A stretch of DNA of 64,000 nucleotides from Bradyrhizobium sp. JYMT SZCCT0180 (GTDB taxonomy: Bacteria; Pseudomonadota; Alphaproteobacteria; Rhizobiales; Xanthobacteraceae). The notes beneath the pieces were generated by a model. It was not told the DNA's origin, did no database searches, and saw only the letters and a list, made by a program, of their open reading frames with translations. Of this stretch, positions 3,165-41,356 are shown piece after piece. Location of the stretch: contig NZ_JAFCLZ010000001.1 in assembly GCF_018130165.1 (NCBI RefSeq), forward strand, positions 62,001 through 126,000, given 5' to 3'. Within the stretch, counting starts at the first letter, position 1, and each line of letters starts with the position of its first letter. The position numbers and the translations under genes are program-made.

Positions 3165-3341
3165 ATGACCGATTTCACCCCCGTCAAAGCCGAAACATTG
3201 ACTTCCGATGAACTCGATCGTGTTTCGGGTGGCATCATCATCGTGAGCGGATTGCAGCGCCAGCTTACCTCCAGGCTGGACTGGGTCGCGCTCAATCCGC
3301 AGCCGCTGCCGCCGAAGGTTTTCTTCTCATTCGGCCGCTGA
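3165..3341 (+). CDS. Small double-glycine-leader peptide (bacteriocin/RiPP-like precursor)
   Basis: This 58-aa ORF has an AAGGA ribosome site before its ATG. Residues 12-23 read LTSDELDRVSGG, the type of leader found on bacteriocin-like precursors cleaved after GG. The C-terminal part is a short hydrophobic stretch (IIIVSGL) and then WVALNPQPLPPKVF. The same leader motif occurs at 40278 and 41168 with unrelated C-termini. No C39-peptidase exporter or modifying enzyme is adjacent; the next gene (3378, minus strand) is convergent. The ORF is real by ribosome site and leader similarity; its fate as a processed peptide is inference. Confidence 0.7.
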   Translation: MTDFTPVKAETLTSDELDRVSGGIIIVSGLQRQLTSRLDWVALNPQPLPPKVFFSFGR

Positions 3342-3377
3342 TCGCGGCCGCAGCCTCCGGCATGACGAACTCGCTCT

Positions 3378-3797
3378 CTAGTTCGTGTTAAGCCGGAAGC
3401 GCAGCGTCCTGGTGCCGATGAAGGAGATCGCATCGCCCTGCCGCTTCCAGGTCGCGGCGTCGGTCAGTGCGGCAATCAGTTCGTCGTCGGCCTGGGCGCG
3501 ATTGGCCGGACAATTGCGGTTCTCCATCGCGCCGGCGACGAAGATCACGGTGTTGCCCGCCACCGAAAACTGGCCCTTGCCGCCCTTGCACCAGAGTTCG
3601 AGCACCACCTCGCCGCGGTCGCCGATTTCCAGATTGGGTATCCGCTTGGAGCCGGGCTGCGGCGGGACATCCATGGTCATTTCCATTCCGAACGGAAAGC
3701 CGTTGTCGGCCTGGGCCTGAGCCGCATTGGGGACGGCGGAAACCAGCAGCACCGCAGCAACGCCTGCGAGCTTCACCATGCGCGCGAATGAAATCAT
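3378..3797 (-). CDS. Secreted META/HslJ-like domain protein
   Basis: The 139-aa product begins with a signal peptide (residues 1 to about 29, cleaved near AAQAQA). The rest resembles the META/HslJ fold: a strand GEVVLELWCKGGKGQFSV, the segment VIFVAGAMENRNCPANRAQADDE, then a helix-like DDELIAALTDAATWKRQGDAI and a last strand TRTLRFRL. Two cysteines (in ELWCKG and NRNCPA) may form a disulfide. META proteins are small periplasmic or envelope proteins linked to stress and motility; exact role unknown. It lies downstream of the metal-efflux operon on the same strand, separated from it by a terminator at 3888-3916. Confidence 0.65.
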   Translation of the reverse strand: MISFARMVKLAGVAAVLLVSAVPNAAQAQADNGFPFGMEMTMDVPPQPGSKRIPNLEIGDRGEVVLELWCKGGKGQFSVAGNTVIFVAGAMENRNCPANRAQADDELIAALTDAATWKRQGDAISFIGTRTLRFRLNTN

Positions 3798-3887
3798 GCA
3801 ACCTCTCGAAATATCTCAAACCCGATAGCGCGCCGTTCTATTGAACAAGTATGTCGTTGGCTAGAGCTGGTGCGCAAAATGCCGCAC

Positions 3888-3916
3888 CAAAGAAAACCCG
3901 CGGCCTGCGCCGCGGG
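3888..3916 (-). terminator. Intrinsic terminator after the metal-efflux operon
   Basis: Perfect 8-bp stem CCCGCGGC/GCCGCGGG (3897-3904 and 3909-3916) with loop CTGC. On the minus strand it is followed by a TTTTCTTT tract (3889-3896). It lies about 40 bp beyond the stop codon of the small periplasmic gene at 3957. Confidence 0.8.
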
Positions 3917-3956
3917 AATTTGATTGACCGATCCGGGTCTTGCTGCGCAATCCCGC

Positions 3957-4328
3957 TCAGTCGAATTTTGCCTGCGCCGTCTTTCCATCAGGGCCGGTCA
4001 GTTGAACGACGCCTTTTGGCTGAACCGGCAATGCGACGCTGGCGGTGCCGGAAAGCAGCGCGCTCCCGGCAGGCTGCAGCAGGATTCGCTGGGATTTGCC
4101 GTCGACAACGAGGATCGCAATCGCCTTGAAGCCGGTGGCCGGAATCGATTTCTGGTTCTCGTCGCTGACGAACAGTTCGAGCTTGTCGGATTTCGAAACC
4201 AGTTCGACGTGATACGATCCGGCATGGGCGACCCAGCCGCCATTCGTTCCCTTCTCGTCGTGCGCCGAGGCGCAAGTCGACCAGGCCAGCATGGCCACAA
4301 CCATCACAAATTTCGCATTCACCGTCAT
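3957..4328 (-). CDS. Small periplasmic protein of the metal-efflux operon (copy 1)
   Basis: About 123 aa with a signal peptide ending CASAHDEKG. The mature part includes NGGWVAHAGSYHVELVSKSD, LELFVSDENQKSIPATGFKA and a C-terminal VVQLTGPDGKTAQAKFD. It is a close paralogue of the protein at 9989, sharing YHVELVSKS, ATGFKAI and KGVVQLT. The two genes also align upstream: here GGAGA sits too close to the ATG at 4328 but well spaced from a GTG at 4322, as in the paralogue, so 4322 may be the true start. It follows the RND pump gene by 16 bp. A periplasmic metal-binding or pump-accessory role is inferred. Confidence 0.75.
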   Translation of the reverse strand: MTVNAKFVMVVAMLAWSTCASAHDEKGTNGGWVAHAGSYHVELVSKSDKLELFVSDENQKSIPATGFKAIAILVVDGKSQRILLQPAGSALLSGTASVALPVQPKGVVQLTGPDGKTAQAKFD

Positions 4329-4344
4329 TCTCCGCATGTTGATG

Positions 4345-7300
4345 TCAAAAGGCTTCGGCGGCTGAATTTGCCGGGGCCGTTCCCGCCTTGCCCTCGGCGC
4401 CTCGCCGCAGCCGCTCCAGAGGCGCTTCGCCATAGCGAAGGAACAGAACGGGCGTCAGCAGCGTGTCGAGCAGGGTCGCGCTGAGCAGGCCGCCGAAAAT
4501 CGTCACCGCCACCGGATGCAGGATTTCCTTGCCGGGCGTTGCCGCGTCGATCAGCAGCGGCACCAGCGCCACGCCGGCCGCCATCGCCGTCATCAAGACC
4601 GGCGTCAGCCGCTCGACGCTGCCGCAAATCACGAGGTCGTGGCCGAACGGCATTCCTTCCTTCAGCGCCAGGTTGATGTAGTGGCTGATCTTCAGGATGC
4701 CGTTGCGAACCGCAATGCCGGTCAGCGTGACAAATCCAACCATCGACGCAACCGAGAGCGGCTGGCCCGCCAGCCAAAGCGCCGCGACCGACCCGATCAG
4801 CGCCAGCGGGACGTTACCCATGATGATGAAGGCGAGCACGCTCGAGCGGTAGCGGCTGTAGAGAATGGCAAACACCAGCAACAGCGACAGCAGCGAGAGT
4901 ACGCCGATGGTCCGGCTTGCTTCCTCCTGGGCCTGGAACGTTCCCTCCAGGCGAACGTAAAAGCCATCGGGCAGTTTTGTCGAAGCGGTTACTTTTCGGA
5001 TCGCTTCGACAATGTCGGTCATGTCGGCGCCCCCTTTAGTGTTCGCGAACACCACCACGCGGCGGCGGCCGTTCTCGCGCAGGATCTGGTTGGGGCCTTC
5101 GGTCTCCTTGACGTCGGCGATCTGCCGCGCCGGGATCCATCCGGCCGGCGTTTCGATCAAGAGGTCGCCCAGGGTTTGCGTGGTGCGAAGCCGATCCGGC
5201 AGCCGCATCGTGACGTCGAACCGCCGATAACCGTCCACCACCCGTGAAATGACGCGGCCGTTCGAGAGCCGGCTGAGTTGCTCGATCACGGCGGCCGGCT
5301 GGACGCCGTAGAGCGCGGCACGGCGATAATCAACACGGATTTCCAGCTGCGGAATCAGCACCTGCTTTTCGACCTGAAGGTCGGTGAGACCAGGAATATC
5401 CGCCAGCTTGCCGCGCAGCATTTCAGCGGTTGCGCGCAGGCTGTTCAGATCGTCGCCGAACACTTTCAGCGCAATTTCGGCCCGAACGCCCGAAAGCAGG
5501 TGGTCGAGCCGGTGCGAAATCGGCTGGCCTACGTTGATCGCAGCGGGAAGCACGGCGAGCCGGGCCCTTATATCCGCGACGATTTCGGTCTTTGGCCGTT
5601 TCGATGGCTTGAGATTGACCTCGAGGTCCGACGAATGGACGCCCTCGGCATGCTCGTCGAGCTCCGCCCGCCCGGTTCGCCGGCCAACGGTCTTGACCTC
5701 GGGCACCTCAAGGACGAGGCGCTCGGCAATCAACCCGACGCGATGGGATTCGGCGAGCGAAATTCCCGGATTGAACAGCATGTTGATCGTGAAGGTGCCT
5801 TCGTTGAAGGGCGGCAGGAATGCGCGGGGAAGATAGAATGCGCTAACCGCCGCAATGACGACCGCCGCGAGGGCGGCAGCCATCAAGGCGCGCTGATAGT
5901 GGAAGACACGTTCCAGCAAGGCCGCATTGGCACGCTTGAGCATCGCGACCAGAGCGCTGTCGCCGTGATCGAGGCGCTTGAGATGCGGAAGCATATAGTA
6001 AGCCATCACCGGGGTCAGGGTGATGGAGACCGCAAGGCTGGCGAGAATGGAGATGATGTAGGCCTGACCAAGCGGCGCAAACAACTTGCCTTCTATACCC
6101 GACAGCGCGAACAGCGGCACGAACACCAGCACGATGATCGCGGTCGCATAGACGATGCCGGACCGGACCTCCTGCGATGCCGACACAATGACATCGAATG
6201 CCGGGAGCGGATGCTCCAATGTCCGATTTTCGCGCAACCGCCGGAAGATGTTTTCGACGTCGACGACGGCGTCATCGACCAGCTCTCCGATGGCGATGGC
6301 AATGCCGCCAAGGGTCATCGTGTTGATCGACAGGCCGGCAAAATAGAACACGACCGCGGTCGTCAGGATCGACACCGGGATCGCAGCCAGCGAGATCGCC
6401 GTCGTCCGCCAGTTCATCAGGAACAGAAACAGCACGATGGCGACGACCGCGCCGGCCTCGAGCAGGACACGCTCGACATTGCGGATCGAGGTTTCGATGA
6501 AATTGGCCTGGCGGAAGATGATCTGGTCGGCTTTCATGCCCGTCGGCAGCGAGGCCGTGATCTCCTTCAGGGCCTGCTCGATCTCGCGCGTGAGCTTGAT
6601 CGTATCGACGTTCGGCTGCTTCTCGACCGAGACGACGACGGCGGGCTTGCCCATATAGCCGGCGTCGCCACGCTTGACCTTGGGTGCAAACTCGACGGTG
6701 GCGACCTGCTTCAGATAGACCGGCCCGCCATTGACCTGCGCCACCACCACGTTGCGAAGGTCGTCCAGATTGGTGGTCCGCCCGATGTTGCGGATCAGAT
6801 ATTCGCGGGCATGCTGATCGGTAAATCCGCCGCCGGTATTGACGCCGAACTGGTTCAAGGCCAGTTCGACCTGCTCATAGGTGACGCCCAGGCTGCGAAG
6901 CGCGGGCGGATTGGGGGAAATTCGATACTGCCGAACCTCACCGCCCATCGGAATCACCTGCGCTACGCCGGGGATCGTGAGCAGCCGCGGCCGCACCACA
7001 AAGTCCGCGGTCTCGCGGACTTCCATTGCCGAAGCCCGCTCGCTGGTCACCGCAACCAGCAGCACCTGGCCCATGATGGAGTTGATCGGTCCCAGTTGCG
7101 GAACGGTGTTGGGCGGCAACTGGGTCCGGATCAGATTGAGGCGTTCGGCGATCTGCTGCCGGTTACGATAGATGTCGGTGCCCCAGTCGAATTCGACATA
7201 GACGATCGAAAGGCCGATTCCGGAAACCGAGCGGACCCGCGTCACGCCGGGAACACCGTTCATCTGCGTTTCGATCGGAAAGCTGACGAGCTGTTCGACC

Positions 7301-7479: not shown

Positions 7480-7491
7480 CTGTCCTGCTCC

Positions 7492-9195: not shown

Positions 9196-9269
9196 CTGAA
9201 TGACTCACCTGAGAAGAAGCGTGTTCTCGCTCGCGCGGCCGGCACATCGTGCCGCCGCGATATCGTTGC

Positions 9270-14196: not shown

Positions 14197-15942
14197 GTGA
14201 AGAACATCCGCTCGACGCTCGCGACCGTATGGCGGATCGCCGCGCCCTATTTCCGTTCCGAGGACAAATGGGCCGGCCGCGCGCTGCTCGCGGCTGTCAT
14301 CACGATCCAACTGCTGCTGGTCGCGATCGACGTCCTCGTGAACCAGTGGCAGAATCGCTTCTTCAACGCGCTGCAGGAATACAATTGGGACGTCTTCGTC
14401 CGGGAGATCGGCGTCTTTTGCGTGCTGGCGAGCTGCGCCGTCGTGCTTGCCGTCTACCAGCTCTACCTCAATCAATGGCTGCAGATTCGCTGGCGGCGCT
14501 GGCTGACCCGGCACTATCTCGGCGAATGGATGCACGGCGCCAATCACTACCGCATGCAATTGCAGGGCGACGCCGCCGACAATCCGGACCAGCGCATTGC
14601 CGACGACGTCAGGCTGTTCGTCGAGCGGACGCTGGATATCGGGCTGAGCCTTCTGAATTCGGTGGTGACGCTGCTTTCCTTCGTCATCATCCTGTGGGGC
14701 CTGTCGGCAGCCGCCCCCTTGCACCTGTTCGGCAAGGAGTACGCCATCCCGGGCTACCTGGTCTGGGGCGCGCTGATCTACGCCGTCCTCGGCACGGCGC
14801 TAACGCAATGGATCGGCTCGCCTTTGGTGCGGCTTGATTTCAAGCAGCAGCAATTCGAGGCCGACTTTCGCTTCAACCTGGTTCGGGCACGGGAGAACTC
14901 CGAGCAGATCGCGCTGTTGCAGGGCGAACGCGCGGAGCGCATGGGGCTTTGGGCGCGTTTCCACCATGTGATCGAAAACTGGTACGGCATCATGGGCCGG
15001 ACCAAGCGGCTGACCACGTTCACCGCGAGCTATTCGCAGGCCGCGGTGATCTTTCCCTACATCCTGGTGGCACCGGCCTTCTTCGAAAAGAAGGTCCAGC
15101 TTGGCGGCCTGACCCAGACCGCGTCCGCGTTCGGCAGCGTGCAGTCGTCGCTGTCGATCTTCGTCACGATCTACCGCACGCTGGCCGACTGGCGCGCCAT
15201 CGTCGCCCGTCTCGACGGGTTTGAAGCCGCCATCGCGAGCGCCACGGCGCTGGAGAAATCGAGCGAATCGATCGACGTCGTCGCATCAGAGGGCGGCACG
15301 GCGATCGACCTGCGCGAGCTCACGCTGCGCCTGCCCAACGGCACGCCGTTGGTCTCGGCCGATGCCTTAAGCCTTCGCGGCGGCGAACGTACGCTGCTCA
15401 CCGGCCCGTCGGGCTCCGGCAAGTCGACCCTGTTCCGGGCCATCGCCGGCATCTGGCCGTTCGGCAGCGGCTCGATCGCCATCCCCGCCGGCGCGTCGGT
15501 CATGATGCTGCCGCAGCGGCCTTACTTTCCGATCGGATCGCTGCATGGGGCGATCGCCTATCCCGGCGCAACCGAAACCTTCAGCGCCGATCGGGTCAGG
15601 GAAGCGCTCACCCAGGTCGGCCTGCCAAAGCTTGCCGGGCGGCTGGAGGAGGAATCGCACTGGAACCGGATGCTCTCGCTTGGCGAGCAGCAGCGCCTCG
15701 CCCTGGCGCGCGCGCTGTTGCACGCGCCGCAATATTTGTTCCTCGACGAGGCGACCGCCTCGCTCGACGAACCCTCGGAAGCCGCGCTGTACGATTTGCT
15801 TGGCTCGGAACTGCCGCAAACCACCATCGTCTCGATCGGCCACCGCTCGACGCTCGAGGCCTTCCACCAGCGCCACGTCGCCATGGTCCGCGACGGCGAC
15901 CGGTTCACGCTGCGGGAAGCGGTCAGCGCCCAGCCGGCGTAA
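14197..15942 (+). CDS. SbmA/BacA-like ABC transporter with fused ATPase (BclA/YddA type)
   Basis: This 581-aa half-transporter starts at GTG (GGAG upstream). The membrane domain (residues 1 to about 330) carries SbmA/BacA-family features, including NRFFNALQEYNWDVF and YLNQWLQIRWRRWLTRHYLG. The ATPase has Walker A GPSGSGKST, a signature altered to SLGEQQRLALARA, and Walker B YLFLDEATASLD. Bradyrhizobium BclA, which takes up plant NCR peptides during symbiosis, has this architecture; so do other YddA/Rv1819c-type proteins. It is probably a peptide or cobalamin-like importer, but which subfamily cannot be settled by eye. It stands alone. Confidence 0.88.
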   Translation: MKNIRSTLATVWRIAAPYFRSEDKWAGRALLAAVITIQLLLVAIDVLVNQWQNRFFNALQEYNWDVFVREIGVFCVLASCAVVLAVYQLYLNQWLQIRWRRWLTRHYLGEWMHGANHYRMQLQGDAADNPDQRIADDVRLFVERTLDIGLSLLNSVVTLLSFVIILWGLSAAAPLHLFGKEYAIPGYLVWGALIYAVLGTALTQWIGSPLVRLDFKQQQFEADFRFNLVRARENSEQIALLQGERAERMGLWARFHHVIENWYGIMGRTKRLTTFTASYSQAAVIFPYILVAPAFFEKKVQLGGLTQTASAFGSVQSSLSIFVTIYRTLADWRAIVARLDGFEAAIASATALEKSSESIDVVASEGGTAIDLRELTLRLPNGTPLVSADALSLRGGERTLLTGPSGSGKSTLFRAIAGIWPFGSGSIAIPAGASVMMLPQRPYFPIGSLHGAIAYPGATETFSADRVREALTQVGLPKLAGRLEEESHWNRMLSLGEQQRLALARALLHAPQYLFLDEATASLDEPSEAALYDLLGSELPQTTIVSIGHRSTLEAFHQRHVAMVRDGDRFTLREAVSAQPA

Positions 15943-25032: not shown

Positions 25033-28000
25033 CTACCACTGATAGCGAACGACGCCCTTGCCGGCGTAGGATCGGCTCACGTCGGAGAACTCACCCTCGA
25101 ACGTCGCGGCGGCGGACCAGCCGTTGATCCATTTCACTTCGGCGGACGCTGTCGTGAGCGCCTTGTTGTGCGACGGCGCCGCGCCGTTGACGACGAAGGA
25201 TGCGCCGGGCAGCGTCTGGGAAGTCGCGCCGATCGAGCGGTCGGTATTATAGTCATAGGCCCACGCCAGCCGGCCGCGCAGCGTGAGGATCGCGTTCTGC
25301 ATCGCCCAGGACTTGTCGGTGCGCACACCAATCTCGCTGCGCGGGGCCGTGACGCTCTTCGCGCCGTACGCGAGTGCAAACGTATTGGCGCCGGACAGAA
25401 CCTGTTCGGCATAGGCGGGCAGCTCGAAGGTGGTGAATTGTCCGGCGGCATAGGGCGTGATGCCGATGCCGCCGATCCATGGGCCGACAAAACGATAGCC
25501 GCCCTCGGCGCGGCCGGAGAAGGCATTGGCCTTGAACTCGGCGCGCAACCGGTCGATGCCGGCGATGGTCACGGTGCGATCGGTCGTGACGTCCTGCCAG
25601 CCATAGGCCAGCGCTGCCGTCAGATACGCCGGGCCAACATTGTGCCGCACGAACGCTCCGGCCTGGAACAGATCAGAGCGGCCGCTTCCCATTCCGTTGA
25701 CGGCAAAACTGGTGCCGCCGCCGGCCAGCGCAAAGCCGGCGATCGTGAACGGCGAGAAGCGATAGTCGGCGCCCACCGCCGTGCCGGCAATGCGCGAAGT
25801 CGCGGTGTTGGAGCCGAGCGCAGCATTGCCGTCTGATGTCTGCGAGCCGCCATAGCCCGCCGCCCACACGCTCCAGCGCGGCCCCCACCCTAGCCCTCCC
25901 CCGCTTGCGGGGGAGGGTTGGGAGGGGGACGCCGCCTTGGTGAACATCGCATAGGCGTCACGGGCGGCAGGCTTTTGCGTCGACGCGTAACCGTTGGCGG
26001 TACTGGTGCCGCCCGCGCCTGGACCATCGCCGCGGCCATCGATAAAGGGATCGGTCAGCAGACCCATGAACTGGTTCATGGCATTGAACGTGGTCGCTTG
26101 CGAACCGGTCGCGGACTCGCCCGACGCTTGGGACAGGCTCCCCGCCGACAGCGTCGCGAACGTCAACGGAATGCCGCCGTTGCTGTTGAAGGAATTGATC
26201 AGCGCGTTGGCGACGTTGTTCTGGTTGCCGTTGAGGGTGCCGGACGCGGGCGTCGTGAAACTCAGGATCAGGTTGAGGTAAGCGTGGGTGGCATCGTAGC
26301 TCAGCGTATCGTGAAAGTTCGCCGGCAGATTGGTGTTGGCGACGGTCGGATTAAACGTTCCGCTCACGCTGCCGGCGGTCAGGATGGTGTACTGCTTGGC
26401 GATATAGCTGCCGGTCGCAAAGTTGGCATTCACGGTCGCGCCGCCGAGCGTGGCCACGCCCGAGACGTTGGCTAACGACGATGTCGTTGGATTGATGTTG
26501 ATGGCATAGGCCGCCGCCGCATTGAAGCCGAGCGTGCCGCTGACCGTCATCGATGACCCGGGCGTGCCCGAACCCGGCGCGAAGGTGCCGCCGGAAACCA
26601 ACGTGTTGCCAACCGTGCCGGTGCCGCTGAGCGTGCCGCCGCTCACGGTGAAAGCCGCGTTGCTCAGGCTGCCATTCACCGCCAGCGTGCCGCCGCTGAC
26701 GGCGAATGTGCCGATGCCGGCGTTGGTGCCGGTGAGCGTCCAGCTGCCGCTGCCGGTCTTCTCGCCGGCCTCGAACGAGGAGAGCTGACCGACATTGAAG
26801 CTGCCCGATCCGGTGCCGCTCAGCCCCAGCGTGTCGGTGCCGAGGCCGCCGAGCACGTTGCCGTTGATGACGGCGCCGGTCACCAGTTCGAGGCGGTTGG
26901 CGAAGGCGCCCGCCTGGTCGAAGTTGATGGCGCCGCTGGCGCCGCCGTTCACCGTGCCGGCCACCGTGACGGTCGCAGGGCGGCCGAGAGCCTGGATGCC
27001 AAAGCCACTGGTGCCGCTCACGGTGCCGGCGGCGGCGACGGTGACGGCGAGCGCGCCGGTGCCGTTGGTGCGCGCAAAAATGCCGTTGGTGCTGCCGCTC
27101 ACCGTTGCGCCGGCTGCGGTGGTCACGCTGAGATTGGTGCCCGCGCCGGAATTGTATGCGAAGATGCCGTTATCATTGGTGCCGGTGACATTGCCGTTGG
27201 CGGTGATGGTCAGCGCGCCCGTGCCTTGGTTGTCCGCAAAAATGCCGATGTTGCCGCCGCTCACCGCGGTGCCGGCGCCGGTGGTCACGGTGAGATTGGT
27301 GCCCGCGCCGGAACTGTATGCGTTGATGCCGCGATTAGAGGTGCCGGTGACATTGCCGTTGGCGGTGATGGTCAGCGCGCCCGTGCCGTAGTTCTGCGCA
27401 AAAATGCCGTTGGCGCCGCTGACCGTCGTGCCGGCGCCGGTGGTCACGGTGAGAGTGGTGCCGGCGCCGGTGTTCCGCGCGTCGATGCCGACACCACTGG
27501 TGGCGGTGACATCGCCGTTGGCGGCGATGGTCAGCGCGCCCGTGCCGTAGTGGCGCGCAAAAATGCCGTTGGTGCCGCTGACCGTTGTGCCGGCGCCGGT
27601 GGTCACGGTGAGAGTGGTGCCGGCGCCGATGTTCCGCGCGTCGATGCCGTTACCAGCGGTGCCGGTGACATCGCCGTTGGCGGCGATGGTCAGCGCGCCC
27701 GTGCCGTAGTGGCGCGCATTAATGCCGTTGGTGCCGCCGCTGACCGTCGTGCCGGCGCCGGTGGTCACCGTGAGATCGGTGCCCGCGCCGAAATTGTATG
27801 CGTTGATGCCGCGATTAGAGGTGCCGGTGACATCGCCGTTGGCAGTGACGGTCAGCGCGCCCGTGCCGCTGTTGATCGCAGAAATGCCGAAGCCGCCGCC
27901 GCTGACCGTGGTGCCCGCGCCGGTGGTCACGCTGAGATCGGTGCCGGCGAAGTTCCGCGCGTAGATGCCTAAACCAGTGGTGCTGGTGACATCGCCATTG

Positions 28001-29346
28001 GCGGTGACACTCAGCGCGCCCGTGCCGTAGTTGCGCGCAAGAATGCCGGAGGTGCCGCCGCTGACCGTCGTGCCGGCGCCGGTGGTCACGCTGAAAGTGG
28101 TGCCGGTGCTGTTGTTCCGCGCGAAGATACCGTAAGTGCCGGTGCCGGTGACGTCGCCATTGGCGGTGACGGTCAGCGCGCCCGTGCCGTCGTTGGCCGC
28201 ATAAATGCCAAGGGTGGCGCCGCTGACCGTCGTGCCGGCGCTGGAGGTCACGCTGAGAGCGGTGCCGGTGCCGCTGTTCCTCGCGTAGATGCCGTTACCA
28301 TTGGTGCCGGTGACATCGCCATTGGCGGTGATGGTGAGCGCGCCCGTGCCGTAGTTCTGCGCAAAAATGCCGTTGGTACTGCCGCTGACCGTCGTGCCGG
28401 CGCCGGTGGTCATGGTGAGATCGGTGCCGGTGTTCCGCGCGTAGATGCCGTTAACACTGGTGCCGGTGACATTGCCGCTTGCGGTGATGGTCAGCGCGCC
28501 CGTGCCGAAGTTGCGCGCAAGAATGCCGAAGTTGCCGCTGACCGTCGTGCCGGCGCCGGTGGTTACGCTGAGAGCGGTGCCGGAGTTGTTCTGCGCGTAG
28601 ATGCCGTTAACACTGGTGCCGGTGACATCGCCGTTGGCGGTGACGGTCAGCGCGCCCGTGCCGAAGTTGCGCGCCCGGATGCCGAAGCCGCCGCTGACCG
28701 TGGTGCCGGCGCCGGTGGTCACGGTGAGAGCGGTGCCGGAGTTGTTCTGCGCGAAGATGCCGTTACCACCGGCGCCGGTGACATTGCCGTTGGCGGTGAT
28801 GGTCAGCGCCCCCGTGCCGTTGTTTTGCCCAACAATGCCGGCGGCGCCGCTGAGCGCGCCATTGGTGGCGATGGTGACGCTGCCGGGCGTGCCGGCAAAG
28901 TCGCCGTTGGAGCGAACATTAAGAGCGTAGCCCGCCGCAGCGGTAAGCGACGAGGCGTTGGTGTCGGTATAGGACAGGGCGCCGTCGCCGGTAATCGTAA
29001 TCGCATGGCCGGCGGCGGTGTTGACGCTGAACCCGGCGACGGTGGAGACGCTGGCGTTGTTGGCGTTGATCGTCTGCGTGGTGACTTCGGCGCCCGAGCA
29101 CTGGTAGGTCGAGCCGCCGGAGTTCACGCAAGCGCCATAGGCGCGACGGCCATAGCCGACGACCGCCGCCGCCAGCATGGTGCCCGACAGCAGAACCCGC
29201 CGGCGCAACGCGCCTGCATGACCAGAATTCAAGACCCCAACTCCCGTCGCCTGGGCCGTACTCTTATGCTCTGCAGCACAAGCGGCCGTACGCCCCACCC
29301 GGCGGCGGTTCCTCGCCAGACTACTGGACCGGCGTCGGCCCATCAA
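25033..29346 (-). CDS. Giant repetitive autotransporter (type Va) with beta-barrel
   Basis: The 1437-aa protein has an extended N-terminus (RRRVLLSGTMLAAAVVGYG signal core at about residues 48-66) and a passenger with 11 full and one degenerate copies of a ~52-residue unit (TGALTVTANGDVTGT ... VTTGAGTTVSG). An autotransporter beta-strand region follows (GSGSWTLTGTNAGIGTFAVS, then GGTLSGTGTVGNTLVSGG). The barrel occupies the last ~280 residues, from RWSVWAAGYGGSQTSDGN to the terminal RYQW. The passenger should form a long beta-helix on the cell surface. Between passenger and barrel the frame crosses a REP-like hairpin (25881-25931). Confidence 0.9.
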   Translation of the reverse strand: MMGRRRSSSLARNRRRVGRTAACAAEHKSTAQATGVGVLNSGHAGALRRRVLLSGTMLAAAVVGYGRRAYGACVNSGGSTYQCSGAEVTTQTINANNASVSTVAGFSVNTAAGHAITITGDGALSYTDTNASSLTAAAGYALNVRSNGDFAGTPGSVTIATNGALSGAAGIVGQNNGTGALTITANGNVTGAGGNGIFAQNNSGTALTVTTGAGTTVSGGFGIRARNFGTGALTVTANGDVTGTSVNGIYAQNNSGTALSVTTGAGTTVSGNFGILARNFGTGALTITASGNVTGTSVNGIYARNTGTDLTMTTGAGTTVSGSTNGIFAQNYGTGALTITANGDVTGTNGNGIYARNSGTGTALSVTSSAGTTVSGATLGIYAANDGTGALTVTANGDVTGTGTYGIFARNNSTGTTFSVTTGAGTTVSGGTSGILARNYGTGALSVTANGDVTSTTGLGIYARNFAGTDLSVTTGAGTTVSGGGFGISAINSGTGALTVTANGDVTGTSNRGINAYNFGAGTDLTVTTGAGTTVSGGTNGINARHYGTGALTIAANGDVTGTAGNGIDARNIGAGTTLTVTTGAGTTVSGTNGIFARHYGTGALTIAANGDVTATSGVGIDARNTGAGTTLTVTTGAGTTVSGANGIFAQNYGTGALTITANGNVTGTSNRGINAYSSGAGTNLTVTTGAGTAVSGGNIGIFADNQGTGALTITANGNVTGTNDNGIFAYNSGAGTNLSVTTAAGATVSGSTNGIFARTNGTGALAVTVAAAGTVSGTSGFGIQALGRPATVTVAGTVNGGASGAINFDQAGAFANRLELVTGAVINGNVLGGLGTDTLGLSGTGSGSFNVGQLSSFEAGEKTGSGSWTLTGTNAGIGTFAVSGGTLAVNGSLSNAAFTVSGGTLSGTGTVGNTLVSGGTFAPGSGTPGSSMTVSGTLGFNAAAAYAININPTTSSLANVSGVATLGGATVNANFATGSYIAKQYTILTAGSVSGTFNPTVANTNLPANFHDTLSYDATHAYLNLILSFTTPASGTLNGNQNNVANALINSFNSNGGIPLTFATLSAGSLSQASGESATGSQATTFNAMNQFMGLLTDPFIDGRGDGPGAGGTSTANGYASTQKPAARDAYAMFTKAASPSQPSPASGGGLGWGPRWSVWAAGYGGSQTSDGNAALGSNTATSRIAGTAVGADYRFSPFTIAGFALAGGGTSFAVNGMGSGRSDLFQAGAFVRHNVGPAYLTAALAYGWQDVTTDRTVTIAGIDRLRAEFKANAFSGRAEGGYRFVGPWIGGIGITPYAAGQFTTFELPAYAEQVLSGANTFALAYGAKSVTAPRSEIGVRTDKSWAMQNAILTLRGRLAWAYDYNTDRSIGATSQTLPGASFVVNGAAPSHNKALTTASAEVKWINGWSAAATFEGEFSDVSRSYAGKGVVRYQW
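25881..25931. repeat. REP-like hairpin inside the autotransporter coding sequence
   Basis: A perfect 11-bp stem CCCTCCCCCGC/GCGGGGGAGGG (25894-25904, 25907-25917) with loop TT is set in C/G-rich flanks that are themselves imperfectly inverted. The protein reads PSQPSPASGGGLGWGP across it, in frame. Such GGGGGAGGG palindromes are common intergenic elements in Rhizobiales, so this looks like an in-frame insertion. Confidence 0.65.
26980..28818. repeat. ~156-bp tandem repeats in the autotransporter passenger
   Basis: About 12 direct copies of a 52-codon unit. Each encodes an ANGDVTGT-type strand, a GIYARN-type turn, a VTTGAGTTVSG strand and a second GI-ARN turn. Units 8 and 9 are almost identical, which points to recent duplication or gene conversion. 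Confidence 0.85.
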
Positions 29347-36515: not shown

Positions 36516-36621
36516 ACGCAACGCTCCAACGCGGGGCAGACTACGGGCGGAGGTCGCAGACTACCTGGCGGAGGTTAATGTCGCGTGTCTCGGACGCGGA
36601 CCGGAAAGCTGCGGCCTGTCG

Positions 36622-36707
36622 CTATCGCGCCGGAACCGGCTTGTCGCCACTGTGGTCGTAGAAGCCGCGTTGGGTCTTGCTGCCGAGCCGACCGGCCCAG
36701 GCACCGT
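36622..36707 (-). pseudogene. C-terminal remnant of a 3-hydroxyacyl-CoA dehydrogenase
   Basis: The minus-strand frame ending at the TAG at 36622 reads GRLGSKTQRGFYDHSGDKPV before the stop. That is the conserved C-terminal end of 3-hydroxybutyryl-CoA dehydrogenases (GRKTGRGFYDY). Nothing upstream continues the gene, so only about 28 codons remain. It adjoins the truncated maoC copy and marks a rearrangement junction. Confidence 0.65.
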
Positions 36708-36753
36708 GGTTTATGGCAACGCCTTGGATACCGAGATTCGACGTCAACACGGA

Positions 36754-37050
36754 TCATGCGGCCGCGTCGTCCGGAAACTCGACCATCGCCTCGCCGCTCG
36801 CGACCTTCTCGCCCGTCTGGTTGCGCACCATGACGTCGATCAGCACCCAGCGCGAGTTCTTGGTCACCCGCTTCGACTTGACCATTCCCTTCGGCTGGAT
36901 GGTGTCGCCGGACTTCATCGGCTTGACCCATCGCGTTTCCAGCCGCCGGTGGATAGCGTCAGCTGAATAGGCCCAGTCGGTCAGCATCCGCGAGATCGGC
37001 CCGAAATTGTTCATGCCGTGCATCATGATGCCGCCGAAATTGGTCTTACC
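36754..37050 (-). pseudogene. Truncated MaoC-dehydratase copy
   Basis: The C-terminal two thirds of the MaoC-like gene at 43045 is repeated here with about 90 percent identity by eye (MHGMNNFG-ISRMLTDWAY, IHRRLETRWVKP, VMVRNQTGEKVASGEAMVEF). Homology ends abruptly near 37050, where the ABC receptor gene stops. The N-terminal ~58 residues are missing and no ribosome site precedes the remaining Met. It is a direct repeat of the intact copy 6.3 kb away. Confidence 0.8.
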
Positions 37051-37074
37051 CTGCGCGCGCGACCAACTGAGGCT

Positions 37075-38289
37075 TCAGCGGGTCGGGTTCTTGACCAGCG
37101 CGCACTTGCTCTCGGACAGCGGCCACACCGTCTCCTCGGGCGGAATCGAGCGAACGATCTCGAGATAGTCCCAAGGGTAGCGGGATTCCTCGGGCTTCTT
37201 TACCCGCGCGAGATACATCGTGCGTGTGACGCGGCCATCGTCGCGGATCTGCGCGTTCTCCGAGAAGGCGTCCTCGACCGGTATGGTGCGCATCTCCGCG
37301 GCGACCTTGTCGGCATCGTCGGTGCCGGCCTTGGCGACCGCCTTGAGATAGTGGCGAACCGCGCCGTAGACGCCGGCATGCAGCATCGAGGGCATCATCC
37401 CGGTCCGTGCCATGAACGCCTTCGACCAGCTGCGGGTCGCTTCATTCGTGTCCCAGTAGGAGGCGGTGGTGAGATAGGTGCCCTGTGTCGCCTTCAAGCC
37501 GAGGGCATGGACGTCCTGAAGGAAGAAGATCAGCGCCGCGAGGTTCTGACCGCCCTGCACTAGTCCGAACTCTCCGGCCTGCTTCATCGTGTTGGTGGTG
37601 TCGTTGCCCGCGTTGGCGATGCCGATGACCTTGGCGCCGGAGGACTGCGCGCGAAGCAGAAAGGAGGAAAAATCCGCCGTGTTGAGTGGATGGCGCAGCG
37701 CGCCCACGACCTTGCCGCCGGCGGCTTCGATCACTTTGGTCGCATCGGCCTGGAGCTGGTGCCCGAATGCATAGTCCGAGGCGAGGATAAACCAGGACGT
37801 TCCGCCCGCCTTCACAACTGCCGAGGCCGTCCCGTGCGACACCGCGTAGGTGTCATAGGTCCAGTGGAATCCGTAAGGCGAGCACTGTTCGTTGGTGAGC
37901 GCGGTGGTGCCGGCGCCGGAATAAAGCGCGATCCGCTTCTTCTCGCGCGCCGCATTCTGCACCGCGAGCGCGACGCCCGAGTTCGGCACGTCGACGATCG
38001 CATCGACGCCCTCCACGTCGAACCAGCGTCGCGCGATCGAGAGGCCGATGTCGGCCTTGTGCTGATGGTCCGCCGAGATCACCTGCACGGGCTTGCCGAG
38101 CACGGTGCCGCCGATTTCCTCGACCGCCATTTCGGCGGCAGCAACCGATCCCTTGCCGGTGATATCGGCCGTCACGCCGGCAAGATCGGTGAGAACGCCG
38201 AGCTTGACGACATCGCCGCTGATCTGGGCTTGCGCCGCGGCCGGCAGCAATGCGGTCAGGAGTGCAACGCCGAGTACATTCAGCCTCAT
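37075..38289 (-). CDS. LivK-type ABC transporter substrate-binding protein
   Basis: 404 aa from the ATG at 38289 with GGAGGAAATCC upstream; a longer frame to 38892 is a shadow of the next gene. A signal peptide (MRLNVLGVALLTALLPAAAQ) precedes the type I periplasmic-binding fold: VKLGVLTDLAGVTADITGKG, VISADHQHKADIGLSIARRW, VDAIVDVPNSGVALAVQNAA. This is the family of branched-chain amino acid and aromatic-compound receptors. No permease or ATPase gene adjoins it. With the hydrolase upstream and MaoC genes nearby, an aromatic or acyl substrate is more likely than an amino acid. Confidence 0.92.
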   Translation of the reverse strand: MRLNVLGVALLTALLPAAAQAQISGDVVKLGVLTDLAGVTADITGKGSVAAAEMAVEEIGGTVLGKPVQVISADHQHKADIGLSIARRWFDVEGVDAIVDVPNSGVALAVQNAAREKKRIALYSGAGTTALTNEQCSPYGFHWTYDTYAVSHGTASAVVKAGGTSWFILASDYAFGHQLQADATKVIEAAGGKVVGALRHPLNTADFSSFLLRAQSSGAKVIGIANAGNDTTNTMKQAGEFGLVQGGQNLAALIFFLQDVHALGLKATQGTYLTTASYWDTNEATRSWSKAFMARTGMMPSMLHAGVYGAVRHYLKAVAKAGTDDADKVAAEMRTIPVEDAFSENAQIRDDGRVTRTMYLARVKKPEESRYPWDYLEIVRSIPPEETVWPLSESKCALVKNPTR

Positions 38290-38342
38290 CCTGGATTTCC
38301 TCCCCGTAAGCGTTTTCTGGTGGTCTTTTCTGGCGGTTTGCG

Positions 38343-39290
38343 TCAGCAACCGCTGACGTCGAGCCAGTCGAGAACCATCGCGGCGAGTTCGTCGCTGTTG
38401 TCCTCGATCATCATCATGTGACCGTTGCCGCGGATGCCGCGCTCCGGCAGCCATACGAACTCCGCGCCGAGATAGCTGGCCGTCGCCTCGTCCACCTCGC
38501 GGGGGTGGCGCGCGTCGTGATCGCCGGTCACGATCAGAATCCGGTGCTCCTTGAGACTGGCCGGATCGCTGATCCTCAAGCCGCGTCCGCCGATGTTGAA
38601 TCGCTCGTTGAGGATGCGCGCGCTCTCCGGGACGATCGAACGGCGGTAGTTCTCGAAGGCTTGGCTCGGAAAGCGCGGCGCGTTCGCCCAATAGGCGGCG
38701 GCGAATTCGGCGCCGAACCACACCGGCCTGTTTTCCTCGGAATAGACCGGGCAGCCCGCGCGCGCGTCGTCGCGCAGCTGCAGAATGGCGGCTGGATCGT
38801 CGGGCAGGTCTGCAAGCAGGTTCGCGGGCGGTCCCGGCGCGATGGCGACGACCGCCACCACCAGATCGGGGCGCTGCTCCACCATCCACCACGCCATCGG
38901 TCCGCTGGCCGAATGCACCAGCAGCACCGCGGGTCCGACCCGCTCCAGAAGTCCGAGCAGCGCGCTTGCGACATCTTGCGTGCCAAGCCTTGCAAAGTCC
39001 GGCCCCATCGGCGAGCGGCCGTGGCCCGGCCAGTCAGGCACAAAGACGCTGCGGCCCGCGGCGGCGAAGCGCGGCGCCCAGCCCGGCCGCAAGTCCGGCG
39101 TCGCCAGATAGCAGGCGCCGGTATGGCCGCCCCCATGCACCATGACGACGGGCGCCTTGCGGGGCACGCGTTCAGTCGGACGGACGTGATCGACATAGAT
39201 GGGATGGGCCGCAGCTCCCGCGTAGAAGGCAGGCGGCACATTGTCCCATGACCCAGGCATGAATTCCCGCTGGGCCGGCACGGCGTCCAT
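38343..39290 (-). CDS. Alpha/beta hydrolase of the catabolic cluster
   Basis: The 315-aa protein has a GGAGG site before the ATG. Motifs are VVMVHGGGHTGACYLATPD (oxyanion), VPDWPGHGRSPMGPDFARLG, the nucleophile elbow LLVHSASGPMAWWM with Ser, VTGDHDARHPREVDE for the acid and IRGNGHMMMIEDNS for His. It lies 53 bp upstream of the LivK-type receptor gene and is probably co-transcribed with it. It is divergent from the MarR gene at 39379, which likely controls both. Hydrolysis of an ester or ring-cleavage product is plausible. Confidence 0.87.
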   Translation of the reverse strand: MDAVPAQREFMPGSWDNVPPAFYAGAAAHPIYVDHVRPTERVPRKAPVVMVHGGGHTGACYLATPDLRPGWAPRFAAAGRSVFVPDWPGHGRSPMGPDFARLGTQDVASALLGLLERVGPAVLLVHSASGPMAWWMVEQRPDLVVAVVAIAPGPPANLLADLPDDPAAILQLRDDARAGCPVYSEENRPVWFGAEFAAAYWANAPRFPSQAFENYRRSIVPESARILNERFNIGGRGLRISDPASLKEHRILIVTGDHDARHPREVDEATASYLGAEFVWLPERGIRGNGHMMMIEDNSDELAAMVLDWLDVSGC

Positions 39291-39370
39291 GCCACCCTCC
39301 CTGTCGCTCGCATTGATCTTTCTTGTTGTCCGGCGATGCTAAGGTGGCACCGATTCTGATGCAAGATGAA

Positions 39371-39407
39371 AGTCACAGATGAGACTAAAAAAGTCACATA
39401 TAAGACT
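39371..39407. promoter_or_regulatory. Direct-repeat operator over the marR start codon
   Basis: Two copies of a 16-base element, AGTCACAGATGAGACT (39371-39386) and AGTCACATATAAGACT (39392-39407), begin exactly 21 bp apart, two helical turns. The first contains the marR ATG. This suggests autorepression and control of the divergent hydrolase promoter. Confidence 0.45.
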
Positions 39408-39924
39408 ATCTAGACCGAAGGCCGCACCGGCCCGCACCGCGCGTCAGGGTGCGGCCGGCGCGATCGCCGACGTGCTCGGCGGCACCGAGATCAAGATCGC
39501 CTACAAGATGGGTTACGTGCTGAACTTCTACCGCGAGCCTTCATTCCGGAAGATCGAGATGGAGTTCGGCCTGACCCGCCCCGAGATCGTCACGCTGATC
39601 TTCCTGAATTTTCGCGAGGCCGTGACCGCAAGCGACATCTGCGAATATACCGGCCACCTCAAGGCGAATATCAGCCGCGGGATCATCGCGCTCGAGAAGA
39701 AAAAGCTGTTGCGCCGCGAAGCCGACAGCACCGACAACCGGCGCCAGATTCTGTTCATCACACCGGCCGGCCGCGCGCTCTATGCGCAGTACATTCCGGC
39801 GCTGCGCGAGCGCGAGCGCAACATGCTTGCCTGCCTGACCCAGCCGGAGCGCAAGGCGTTCGAACGCCTGCTCGACAAACTCGCCGGCCATGTGCCGCTC
39901 TGGGCGGCGCTCGGTGAATTGTAA
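39379..39924 (+). CDS. MarR-family transcriptional regulator
   Basis: 181 aa. After a basic, disordered N-terminus (about 1-28) comes the MarR winged helix: GLTRPEIVTLIFLNFREAVT, ASDICEYTGHLKANISRGII (recognition helix), LEKKKLLRREADSTDNRRQI (wing) and AGRALYAQYIPALRERERN. MarR proteins of this kind repress aromatic or acyl-CoA degradation genes and respond to CoA thioesters. It is divergent from the hydrolase/receptor pair. A fragment of this gene is duplicated at 41480. Confidence 0.9.
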   Translation: MRLKKSHIRLSRPKAAPARTARQGAAGAIADVLGGTEIKIAYKMGYVLNFYREPSFRKIEMEFGLTRPEIVTLIFLNFREAVTASDICEYTGHLKANISRGIIALEKKKLLRREADSTDNRRQILFITPAGRALYAQYIPALRERERNMLACLTQPERKAFERLLDKLAGHVPLWAALGEL

Positions 39925-39949
39925 GGCGGCGCGCCGGTGCAGCACCCAG

Positions 39950-40014
39950 AGCCTTTTCCGTTTCGATTGAATCGGAACGGGGCTCTAGATTCACTTCGCT
40001 GGAAAACGCTCTAG
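39950..40014. repeat. Dispersed repeat family, copy 4
   Basis: AGAGCCTTTTCCGTT, GAATCGGAACGGGGCTCTAG and GAAAACGCTCTAG match the outer parts of the copy at 23195; the TTTTGACGCG centre is deleted. The rest of the gap to 40277 holds only the region upstream of the peptide gene at 40278. Confidence 0.6.
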
Positions 40015-40277
40015 GACGCGGACGGCGGCCGCGGACCGCCGAACCGATGACGTCCGTTTTTGGGAGCAGAGCGACCTCGCCAATGCAGGCGCTGACTTCC
40101 GCAAATGACTTAAAACGGACTTGCTGCGCCTCCGCACACCGGAGATCAAATAAGCCATTGCCCGGGCCGTGAAACAATGCTGCAATCCGGATGAAGTCGT
40201 TTTCTATGTCTTGCGAACTCGTCCCGAAACCGACCCGTGGTCTCGCTCGACCTGCGGTCACACAACGGAGGTCCGCC

Positions 40278-40445
40278 ATGGCCAAGATCAGGAAGCAAAA
40301 CGAGGAAGCGAAAACAACCAAAGCTCCCGACCTGGAAACGGCAGACCTGACCACCGCCGAACTCGACGCGGTGAATGGCGGTACGAGAATAACGGAAAAG
40401 TATAACGAATCGGCTCGGAAGGTAATTGACAAGCTTCGTGGATGA
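40278..40445 (+). CDS. Double-glycine-leader peptide 2
   Basis: The 55-aa ORF has a GGAGG site before the ATG. Residues 24-35 read LTTAELDAVNGG, the same leader type as at 3165 and 41168. The N-terminus (MAKIRKQNEEAKTTK) is charged; the 20 residues after GG (TRITEKYNESARKVIDKLRG) form a basic, amphipathic helix by eye. That would be the released peptide if cleaved after GG. A terminator with a UUCG loop follows at 40540. No exporter or modification gene is beside it. Confidence 0.65.
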   Translation: MAKIRKQNEEAKTTKAPDLETADLTTAELDAVNGGTRITEKYNESARKVIDKLRG

Positions 40446-40539
40446 CGGATCGAGGGTGCCATCGTGCACCTCGATCGAAATCGTCGGAAGTCAGACTTGG
40501 TACTGATGGTCGTTTGACTGTTTCAGGTTTTGAATTTGG

Positions 40540-40562
40540 AAGCCGCCTTCGGGCGGTTTTTC
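40540..40562 (+). terminator. UUCG-loop intrinsic terminator
   Basis: GCCGCC-TTCG-GGCGGT followed by TTTT, with an A-rich upstream flank. It lies about 95 bp after the stop of the peptide at 40278. Confidence 0.8.
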
Positions 40563-40584
40563 GTTGTGCAAGACTGCATCCGCT

Positions 40585-40713
40585 ATGTCAGACCGACAGA
40601 ACGGCGGTTTTGACCCCCTTGCGGAAGCGGTCGGCTTTAAGGGCGAGCGCCATAAACCTTCGTATAGTTCAGCGACCCGTTGGGATACCCGACGCTTACC
40701 TACGTCCAATTGA
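40585..40713 (+). CDS. Possible very small ORF between the two leader peptides
   Basis: ATG to TGA encodes 42 aa, starting MSDRQNGGFDPLAEAVGFKG and ending in a basic segment. There is no convincing ribosome site and no leader motif. It is listed because it is the only plausible frame in the 720-base gap; the gap also holds a hairpin terminator at 40804. Confidence 0.2.
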   Translation: MSDRQNGGFDPLAEAVGFKGERHKPSYSSATRWDTRRLPTSN

Positions 40714-40803
40714 GCCGCCGATCGCGATCATCTTAGCTAGGGGGGTGCGGTAGCGCCCCTTGCGCTATCGCTGCCCTCTTTGGGCGTTTCCTCCCTAGAC
40801 TTG

Positions 40804-40837
40804 GGCCGCTTGCGCCAACGCAGGCGGCCTTTCTTTT
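40804..40837 (+). terminator. Orphan intrinsic terminator
   Basis: An 11-bp stem GGCCGCTTGCG/CGCAGGCGGCC (one G-T pair), loop CCAA, followed by TTTCTTTTT. No gene ends within 90 bp upstream, so an unrecognised small RNA or the weak ORF at 40585 may use it. Confidence 0.75.
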
Positions 40838-41167
40838 TGTGTTTGCCGTCACGTCCGCAACAATGCCGCGCCAGCACTGATTCCAACCACAACGCTCCTG
40901 CCGCTTCGGCAAGCAAAGCAAGACGTGAGCGAGGAGGAAATGATCCGGCAGCGCCTCGCCGACTTCGAACGGACGCGCAGGTTGCCTTGAGGACTTCCTG
41001 AAGCAGGGTGCGAATGATCGAGGGCGCGGGAGACCTCGGCGTGTGATGCTGGTCACCTATTGGCTGTTACCGGGGGAACAGCGCATCATTGCAAGGTGGG
41101 GCATTTTCCCGGCATCGACGGAACGGGGCGAATGATCGCGCCGGTCGAGCTAGAGGGAGAATGTGCC

Positions 41168-41356
41168 ATGTCTAACGGGAATCGGAACGATCTTCGCGAC
41201 CTCACCGAGAACGACCTCGCCGCCGTCACGGGAGGCGGATATATCCATCTGCATCCGACTGGCTTTGGCGTCAGGGCCGACTTCATGATCGCTCAGAAGC
41301 AGCTGATGGAGAGCAACTATCGCGGCGCAATCGAAGTCCCGACAATTCGGCTGTGA
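41168..41356 (+). CDS. Double-glycine-leader peptide 3
   Basis: The 62-aa ORF has GGGAGA before its ATG. Residues 12-24 read LTENDLAAVTGGG, matching the leaders at 3165 and 40278. The part after GG (YIHLHPTGFGVRADFMIAQK and onward to TIRL) has two His and no Cys. It differs completely from the other two. Bases just downstream (41480 on) carry a duplicated marR fragment. Processing and export are inferred from the leader only. Confidence 0.65.
   Translation: MSNGNRNDLRDLTENDLAAVTGGGYIHLHPTGFGVRADFMIAQKQLMESNYRGAIEVPTIRL

What the first reader, a model, noticed from the sequence alone, without database searches (positions are those of the whole stretch)
3165..41356. Three scattered small peptides share an LTxxELxxVxGG leader but have unrelated C-termini
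ORFs at 3165-3341, 40278-40445 and 41168-41356 (55-62 aa, each with its own ribosome site) carry LTSDELDRVSGG, LTTAELDAVNGG and LTENDLAAVTGG at similar positions. The parts after GG do not resemble each other. That is the pattern of a leader-guided peptide family: constant leader, variable core. No C39-type exporter, YcaO, radical SAM or lanthipeptide synthase is in the window, so any exporter would act from elsewhere. This may be a family of secreted peptides with an unlinked maturation system.
Basis: partly seen in the sequence, partly recalled or inferred. Interest (0 to 1): 0.7.

Follow-up and report, generated by a model that had tools for sequence, protein, structure and literature searches.

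The report
Scattered cAMP-switched secreted peptide genes
A soil Bradyrhizobium carries about 49 predicted small peptide genes scattered through its genome; they share one export tag and nearly all sit behind the same kind of genetic switch, so a single exporter elsewhere in the genome would likely trim and release them together as a mixed peptide cocktail.

Summary
The three ORFs are real and belong to a far larger family. The fetched parts of this 8.04-Mb Bradyrhizobium genome hold 49 short ORFs with an L-xxx-E-L-xx-V-x-GG leader (reversed motif: 3), in 39 core groups. One C39 exporter in the genome keeps the catalytic cysteine: an NHLM-type system on another contig. Across 117 Bradyrhizobium genomes leader and exporter occur together (30/6/4/77; p = 1e-17, not tree-corrected); 21 of 27 named exporter loci carry such peptides (reversed motif: 0).

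New here: 44 of 49 genes carry a Crp-family box upstream (40 GTGA-N6-TCAC with at most one mismatch; 7 perfect Clr-type). The box lies 32 bp from a -10-like element, as in class II CRP promoters. Its half-sites changed at 1 of 332 positions between species, against 15% around. A Clr-like regulator and a CHASE2 cyclase gene lie near the exporter; that regulator was found in 5 of 117 genomes, including the four with most leader hits. Cores are under purifying selection in one species comparison, unclear in the other.

Secretion, cleavage, regulator binding and peptide function are untested. P0002 (40278-40445) has no box; P0003 survives only as a fragment in the one relative with a clear trace.

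The parts
3077..3090 (+). Crp-family box GTGACCTGGATCAC, 88 bp before the start of P0001
   Evidence: in G012 one base of the spacer differs and both half-sites are kept
3113..3118 (+). -10-like hexamer CAATGT at box+36, predicted class II promoter spacing
   Evidence: alignment of 32 genes on the box; sequence
3128..3144 (+). short hairpin at the predicted 5' end of the mRNA
   Evidence: no compensatory changes found between species
3165..3233 (+). P0001 leader MTDFTPVKAETLTSDELDRVSGG
   Evidence: leader HMM E 0.003
3234..3341 (+). P0001 core (35 aa) and stop; conserved IIIVSG...ALNPQPLPP core family
   Evidence: 119 of 121 sequences examined keep NPQPLP; syntenic ortholog in G012
40278..40382 (+). 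P0002 leader, 35 aa, ending LTTAELDAVNGG; no Crp-family box found upstream
40383..40445 (+). P0002 core (20 aa) and stop
41043..41056 (+). Crp-family box GTGATGCTGGTCAC upstream of P0003
41065..41080 (+). Clr-type box TGTTACCGGGGGAACA (12 of 12), 103 bp before the start of P0003
   Evidence: consensus HGTYHCNNNNGRWACA from PMC10127613 (passages)
41168..41236 (+). P0003 leader MSNGNRNDLRDLTENDLAAVTGG
   Evidence: HMM E 0.058
41237..41356 (+). P0003 core (39 aa) and stop
   Evidence: in G012 only a 79-bp piece of the core is matched

Best explanation
The three ORFs are members of a genome-wide set of about 49 predicted double-glycine-leader peptide genes, nearly all behind Crp-family boxes, whose products are likely cut after GG and exported by one NHLM-type C39 transporter system encoded on another contig. 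Shown by sequence: the shared leader; the single C39 protein with a catalytic cysteine (ABC1, with ABC2 and HlyD partners); leader and exporter occurring together across the genus; the promoter box and its spacing to a -10-like element; the footprint between species. Inferred: a cyclic-nucleotide signal (the CHASE2-cyclase gene near the exporter would make it) activates a Clr-like regulator, which turns on the scattered genes from class II promoters. The C39 domain reads Leu-12, Leu-7 and Val-4 of each leader, cuts after GG, and the complex releases unmodified mature peptides of 19-49 residues. Their task outside the cell is not known. I lean to secreted signals or mild antagonists acting between cells, because orthologous cores are conserved in the clean comparison and I recognised no adjacent immunity genes.
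For: Genome-wide leader excess: 75 vs 6 by DNA pattern, 49 vs 3 ORFs. Leader composition of 42 motif rows: Leu-12 in 37, Glu-8 in 28, Leu-7 in 42, Val-4 in 36, Gly-Gly in 42 (the search motif limits these positions to classes), the positions LahT150 reads (PMC6363468, passages). Only one of three C39 proteins shows the Cys at the expected place (by eye); it scores 1059 bits to TIGR03796, with ABC2 866 and HlyD 303, all over cut-off. Co-occurrence over 117 genomes: 30 both, 6 exporter only, 4 leader only (two of them incomplete genomes with a cut exporter), 77 neither, Fisher p = 9.6e-18. 21 of 27 named exporter loci hold such peptides, reversed motif 0 of 27. Promoter: exact GTGA-N6-TCAC in 32 of 49, at least 7/8 in 40; 200 shuffles give means 0.135 and 3.55 (max 2 and 10); other spacers give at most 2 exact cases. 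7 perfect Clr-type boxes (shuffles mean 0.09, max 1), 44 of 49 with either. -10-like element 32 bp from the box centre. Footprint: half-sites 1 of 332 changed, other upstream 846 of 5483, over 42 gene pairs. Clr-like gene in 5 of 117 genomes, those with 38, 45, 40, 23 and 8 leader hits.
Against: No exact CRP-type and no near-perfect Clr-type box lies within 500 bp upstream of the exporter's HlyD gene in any of 20 exporter loci, so the exporter is not shown to share the switch. The linked Clr-like gene is absent from the other exporter loci although 37 of 60 peptides there have a box, so another Crp protein must act there, and the five Clr-bearing genomes may simply be one clade. The co-occurrence test is not corrected for phylogeny. 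The box was noticed by eye in the same genes on which it was then counted. P0002 has no box. In the own-G085 comparison, which includes mispaired neighbours, the core ratio is 0.59; for P0001 alone vs G012 the core shows 1 silent and 5 replacement changes. The hairpin has no compensatory changes. Six exporter-bearing genomes give no leader hit, and 6 of 27 named exporter loci show no peptide.
Confidence: 0.7

Rival explanations
1. A scattered arsenal of class II microcin-like bacteriocins: each core kills or inhibits neighbours, sharing one exporter.
For: The leader type and C39 exporter are those of class II microcins and bacteriocins (established knowledge); 6 of 49 cores have glycine-zipper runs and 9 of 49 have GRAVY above 0.3; weak matches of P0001 to Bacteriocin_IIc and of P0003 to bacteriocin_sig, below cut-off.
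Against: Most genes stand alone: 13 of 49 have a same-strand ORF of 35 aa or more with a ribosome site starting within 160 nt behind them; one of these 13 (143 aa, GRAVY 0.94) is strongly hydrophobic and one is another GG peptide. Opposite-strand or more distant immunity genes were not looked for. The median core is not hydrophobic (GRAVY -0.17). The P0001 core is nearly constant in the 121 sequences examined.
Confidence: 0.3
2. RiPP precursors modified in trans by an unlinked enzyme (for example the genome's single YcaO) before export by the NHLM system.
For: The NHLM exporter families were described together with modified NHLP/Nif11 precursors (PMC2887384, passages); one YcaO match exists, on contig C8.
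Against: No maturase among the exporter-locus ORFs scanned; only 4 of 49 cores have two or more Cys; the NHLP leader family has no match over its cut-off. Other maturase families were not searched genome-wide.
Confidence: 0.12
3. Leader and exporter co-occur only because both mark certain lineages; the peptides are not substrates of this exporter.
For: The test is not tree-corrected; the largest peptide counts may all sit in one clade.
Against: Exporters only 61-73% identical to this one also have GG peptides close by: 21 of 27 named loci, reversed motif 0, and 13 of 14 loci fetched by handle. No other C39 protein of the genome shows the catalytic Cys.
Confidence: 0.1

Closest known systems
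Prochlorosins / synechococsins (procA/syncA with one ProcM/SyncM)
   Same: Many precursor genes scattered through a genome, shared leader, varied cores, one processing hub (PMC10783134, passages).
   Different: Those are Nif11-leader lanthipeptides made by a LanM-type enzyme; here the leaders are short, no LanM was seen among the exporter-locus ORFs scanned, and nearly all genes share a Crp-family promoter box.
NHLM export cassette TIGR03794/03796/03797 (Haft et al. 2010)
   Same: All three exporter proteins score over the curated cut-offs; Haft et al. also linked precursors to the cassette by species distribution (PMC2887384, passages).
   Different: Most precursors here have short leaders (about 17-35 residues) and the genome has no NHLP-type leader over cut-off; they are dispersed, about 49 against 1-12 NHLPs per genome in the passages.
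Class II microcins / double-glycine bacteriocins with PCAT exporters
   Same: Leader positions L-12, E-8, L-7, V-4, GG and a C39 exporter with HlyD partner.
   Different: No adjacent immunity genes recognised, median core not hydrophobic, about 49 dispersed genes.
Clr regulon of Sinorhizobium meliloti (CHASE2 cyclases, cAMP/cGMP, Clr)
   Same: The linked regulator best matches Clr 7pza (155 bits, next 85); 7 boxes fit HGTYHCNNNNGRWACA; a CHASE2-cyclase gene adjoins.
   Different: The passages I saw say nothing of GG peptides; most boxes here are the GTGA-N6-TCAC variant; binding is untested.

Membership tests
Double-glycine (C39/PCAT) leader peptides | Leu-12, Glu-8, Leu-7, Val/Ile-4 and Gly-Gly before the cut | tested here: met
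   42 motif rows: L-12 37, E-8 28, L-7 42, V-4 36, GG 42; the search motif demands GG and limits the other positions to residue classes
Double-glycine (C39/PCAT) leader peptides | A C39 peptidase-exporter with catalytic Cys in the genome | tested here: met
   One of three C39 proteins shows the Cys, on C10 (position judged by eye)
Double-glycine (C39/PCAT) leader peptides | Cleavage after GG and export | not testable with these tools
   needs biochemistry or mass spectrometry
NHLM export system | ABC1 (TIGR03796), ABC2 (TIGR03797), HlyD (TIGR03794) over cut-off | tested here: met
   1059, 866 and 303 bits vs cut-offs 853, 709 and 156
NHLP precursor family (TIGR03793) | Nitrile-hydratase-like leader over cut-off | tested here: not met
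   Best own-genome match 37.1 bits vs 50.9, in a 224-residue open frame
Nif11 precursor family (TIGR03798) | Nif11-like leader | tested here: inconclusive
   The three window peptides have no NCBIfam match to it at E <= 10; the other 46 and the genome were not searched
Class II microcins / bacteriocins | Immunity gene next to the precursor | tested here: inconclusive
   13 of 49 have a following same-strand ORF within 160 nt, one of them strongly hydrophobic; other places not examined
Class II microcins / bacteriocins | Antibacterial activity | not testable with these tools
   -
Class II Crp/Clr-dependent promoters | Palindromic box with about 32 bp from box centre to -10 centre | tested here: met
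   the class II geometry itself is recalled
Class II Crp/Clr-dependent promoters | Regulator binding and cNMP response | not testable with these tools
   -

The most novel reading that the evidence does not exclude
A host- or neighbour-responsive peptide-release programme: a CHASE2 cyclase senses an outside signal, cyclic nucleotide activates a dedicated Clr-like regulator, and about 49 scattered promoters fire together, filling one C39 exporter with some 39 unrelated unmodified peptides. Genes with this promoter-leader module appear to have spread through one Bradyrhizobium lineage as a plug-in format, with at least one genomic slot whose core differs between species while promoter and flanks stayed.
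Probability: 0.4. Interest if true: 0.85.

Novelty: new variant of a known kind. Interest (0 to 1): 0.72.

Why it matters
Peptide-secreting gene clusters are usually found because precursor, exporter and immunity genes sit together; here nearly all precursors would be missed that way. The shared leader plus shared promoter box gives a search rule for hidden secreted peptides in soil and plant-associated bacteria. If the Clr link holds, cyclic-nucleotide signalling, known in Sinorhizobium for plant-signal control of infection, would also govern a secreted peptide cocktail, which is directly testable with one deletion and one supernatant analysis.

Tried and rejected
Tried without gain: Pfam and NCBIfam scans of the three peptides gave no match over cut-off. 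The first leader regular expression was wrong by one position and was replaced. A k-mer count of upstream regions showed little by itself; the box was seen by eye in its printout and then counted, so discovery and count used the same 49 genes. The relatives were counted afterwards: at least 7/8 or Clr-type in 32 of 36 (G012), 26 of 31 (G085) and 37 of 60 (others). A 5'-UTR hairpin is enriched at -50..-12 (23 of 49 vs mean 5.9, max 9 in 40 shuffles) and its stem is conserved, but no compensatory changes were seen (0 two-sided, 4 one-sided kept, 2 broken), so I do not claim an RNA element. I looked for the box before the exporter's HlyD gene and did not find it. The box at L006:12867 precedes no ORF I could find. 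The core-matched ortholog counts are biased towards conserved cores, so I prefer the synteny pairs. Rows dropped: the first footprint used 35 of the 49 synteny pairs, leaving out 14 by hand (second genes, mispairs, weak flanks); I reran it with all 42 pairs of at least 70% peptide identity, leaving out 7. In some searches the 117 'relatives' span 47 genera and are not the 117 genus genomes; G085 may not have been among them. The 14 exporter loci all came from genomes with leader hits; the 27 named loci were not chosen so (several are the same loci as). Papers: passages only of PMC10127613, PMC6363468, PMC3140520, PMC2887384, PMC10783134, PMC13001267; otherwise search listings. Searches for prior description (only the listed rows seen, open-access library) listed no title describing such a Bradyrhizobium peptide set.
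Full report
What was given. All three ORFs are as described.

The family is genome-wide. The window lies in an 8.04-Mb genome. The DNA pattern for ELDxVxGG occurs 75 times with up to 2 mismatches against 6 for the reversed pattern. I fetched stretches around hits and counted short ORFs with a leader, a plausible start and ribosome site and fewer than 110 residues: 49, against 3 for the reversed motif under the same filter. A leader HMM built from 41 of the leaders gives 61 own-genome matches at E <= 10 and 38 at E <= 0.05. Not all of the genome was read, so 49 is a lower figure with perhaps three chance entries. The 49 cores fall into 39 groups, 33 of them singletons, with a median length of 31 residues and a range of 19-49.

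One exporter. Pfam's C39 model finds four matches in three proteins. Two are HlyB/LssB-type transporters that by eye lack the catalytic Cys; the third, L006:8493-10721 on contig C10, shows it and is an NHLM ABC1 at 1059 bits, followed by ABC2, with HlyD in front and one GG peptide beside them. The leaders mostly have Leu-12, Leu-7, Val-4 and Gly-Gly, the positions that the C39 domain LahT150 binds (PMC6363468, passages).

Co-occurrence. In 117 genomes of the genus (handles G000-G116), 36 have an ABC1 over the cut-off and 34 have at least one leader hit at E <= 0.05. The overlap is 30, with 6 exporter-only, 4 leader-only and 77 with neither, Fisher p = 9.6e-18. Of the four leader-only genomes, G090 and G101 are incomplete and have a cut exporter; G009 and G116 have one hit each. 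Outside the genus (80 genomes), 4 have the exporter and 5 a single leader hit, with 2 in common. The test ignores relatedness. In 14 exporter loci fetched by handle, all from genomes with leader hits, 13 hold GG peptides within the 12-20 kb fetched, up to ten. In 27 named exporter loci (L164-L189, L224), not chosen for leaders but overlapping the first set, 21 hold at least one and none a reversed motif. Most leader-positive genomes have 1-8 hits; G000, G012, G085 and G090 have 38, 45, 40 and 23, and G083 has 15.

A shared promoter. Upstream of the 49 genes, an exact GTGA-N6-TCAC is present in 32 and at least 7 of 8 bases in 40; 200 shuffles give means of 0.135 and 3.55, and no other spacer length from 2 to 12 has more than 2 exact cases, although spacer 8 gives 14 genes at 7 of 8. 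Seven genes have a perfect TGTYAC-N4-GGAACA box, which fits the Clr consensus HGTYHCNNNNGRWACA (PMC10127613, passages); 44 of 49 have one kind or the other. Of the five without, L017:15865, L020:9093 and L114:1254 are second genes directly behind a boxed peptide gene; P0002 and L017:16663 are unexplained. Aligned on the box, 32 genes show a (C/T)A...T hexamer 36-41 bases on (C or T in 30, A in 23, T in 19 of 32), so box centre and -10 centre are 32 bp apart, the geometry of class II CRP promoters (geometry recalled). Genome-wide, the stricter GTGAYNNNNRTCAC has 100 places (reversed control 2); 28 of the 49 genes own at least one. So the box is not exclusive to peptides.

Footprint. Over 42 syntenic gene pairs with two related species (33 of them boxed), box half-sites changed at 1 of 332 positions, the box spacer at 26 of 224, and other upstream positions at 846 of 5483 (a first version with 35 pairs gave 1 of 316, 22 of 212 and 674 of 4154). 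Boxes were defined in the own genome. Divergence is 14-25% beyond -100 and falls to 4-13% from -100 to the start codon (35 pairs). For 18 own-G012 pairs with both flanks syntenic, dN/dS is 0.15 for cores, 0.16 for the leader motif and 0.46 for the rest of the leader. For 17 own-G085 pairs it is 0.59, 0.33 and 0.91, a set that includes at least three mispaired neighbours or exchanged peptides.

The regulator. Within about 12 kb, the exporter locus also encodes a Crp-type protein (L006:371-1069) and a CHASE2-cyclase. The regulator's best solved relative is S. meliloti Clr, 155 bits against 85 for the next. At E <= 1e-40 it occurs in 5 of 117 genus genomes: G000, G012, G085, G090 and G100. These have 38, 45, 40, 23 and 8 leader hits, more than the 32 other exporter-bearing genomes (maximum 15; rank test p = 2e-4; not tree-corrected). 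In S. meliloti, CHASE2 cyclases and Clr respond to a plant protein signal (PMC13001267, passages). Against a simple story: no exact box lies within 500 bp upstream of HlyD in 20 exporter loci, and other lineages have boxes without this regulator.

The three window peptides. P0001 is the typical case: box, -10-like element, hairpin, leader and a core family whose NPQPLP part is kept in 119 of the 121 sequences examined (the query plus the best 120 of 268); a syntenic ortholog exists in G012. P0003 has both box types; G012 keeps only a piece of its core, and one other genome gives a weak match inside a 558-residue frame. P0002 has a good leader but no box, and only weak matches in the 117 genomes; the protein database holds 6 other entries, one of them an identical longer call.

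How it likely works. Cyclic nucleotide, Clr-like protein, class II promoters, leader-tagged precursors, C39 cut and export by one NHLM complex. The sequence facts are shown; each working step is inferred. Function outside the cell is open: lack of recognised immunity genes and, in the clean comparison, conserved cores favour signals or mild antagonists over classical bacteriocins, but I hold bacteriocins at 0.3.

Novelty. Many scattered precursors with one hub are known from prochlorosins, and NHLM exporters are known. New, as far as the listed literature searches show, are the short-leader format without a linked maturase, the Bradyrhizobium setting and the common Crp-family promoter. I therefore call it a new variant of a known kind.

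Noticed in passing
L008:19583-19753 (own) vs L100:1006-1152 (G085): Same promoter and flanks (88-97% identical) but a different peptide coding region in the two species; the G085 peptide resembles another own peptide (L031:9010). Core exchange at a fixed slot, or differential loss from a tandem pair.
   Followed up: partly
L126:14359-14481 (G041): A GG leader followed by only LNPQPLPRE, nearly the motif near the end of the P0001 core.
   Followed up: no
L117, L118, L119, L121: Relatives carry several near-identical GG peptides beside the exporter with cores (NNIVAQANNATQVGVAQGG...) that recall curlin repeats by eye.
   Followed up: no
L017:4671-16830: A loose cluster of eight GG peptides of different cores within about 12 kb on contig C23, on both strands, without the exporter.
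   Followed up: partly
L005:10333-13098: A 921-residue HlyB-type transporter with two C39-like domains, neither with the catalytic Cys at the expected place by eye.
   Followed up: no
window 41464-41567: A 104-bp piece 88% identical to part of the ORF at 39379-39924 (regulator-like by eye; no Pfam match at 1e-10), so P0002 and P0003 lie between a gene and a partial copy of it.
   Followed up: partly
window 14197-15942: ABC transporter with SbmA/BacA-like membrane part and its own ATPase domain, a type known for peptide uptake in rhizobia (recalled).
   Followed up: no
window 25033-29346 and 48739-51795: Two large autotransporter-domain proteins (PF03797).
   Followed up: no
L006:12867-12880: A perfect box of the same type with no ORF found behind it, near the exporter; possibly a lost peptide gene.
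   Followed up: partly
G000 C8:162669-163628 (L246): The genome's only YcaO match; no GG leader seen by eye among the ORFs of 60 aa or more in the 4 kb around it.
   Followed up: partly
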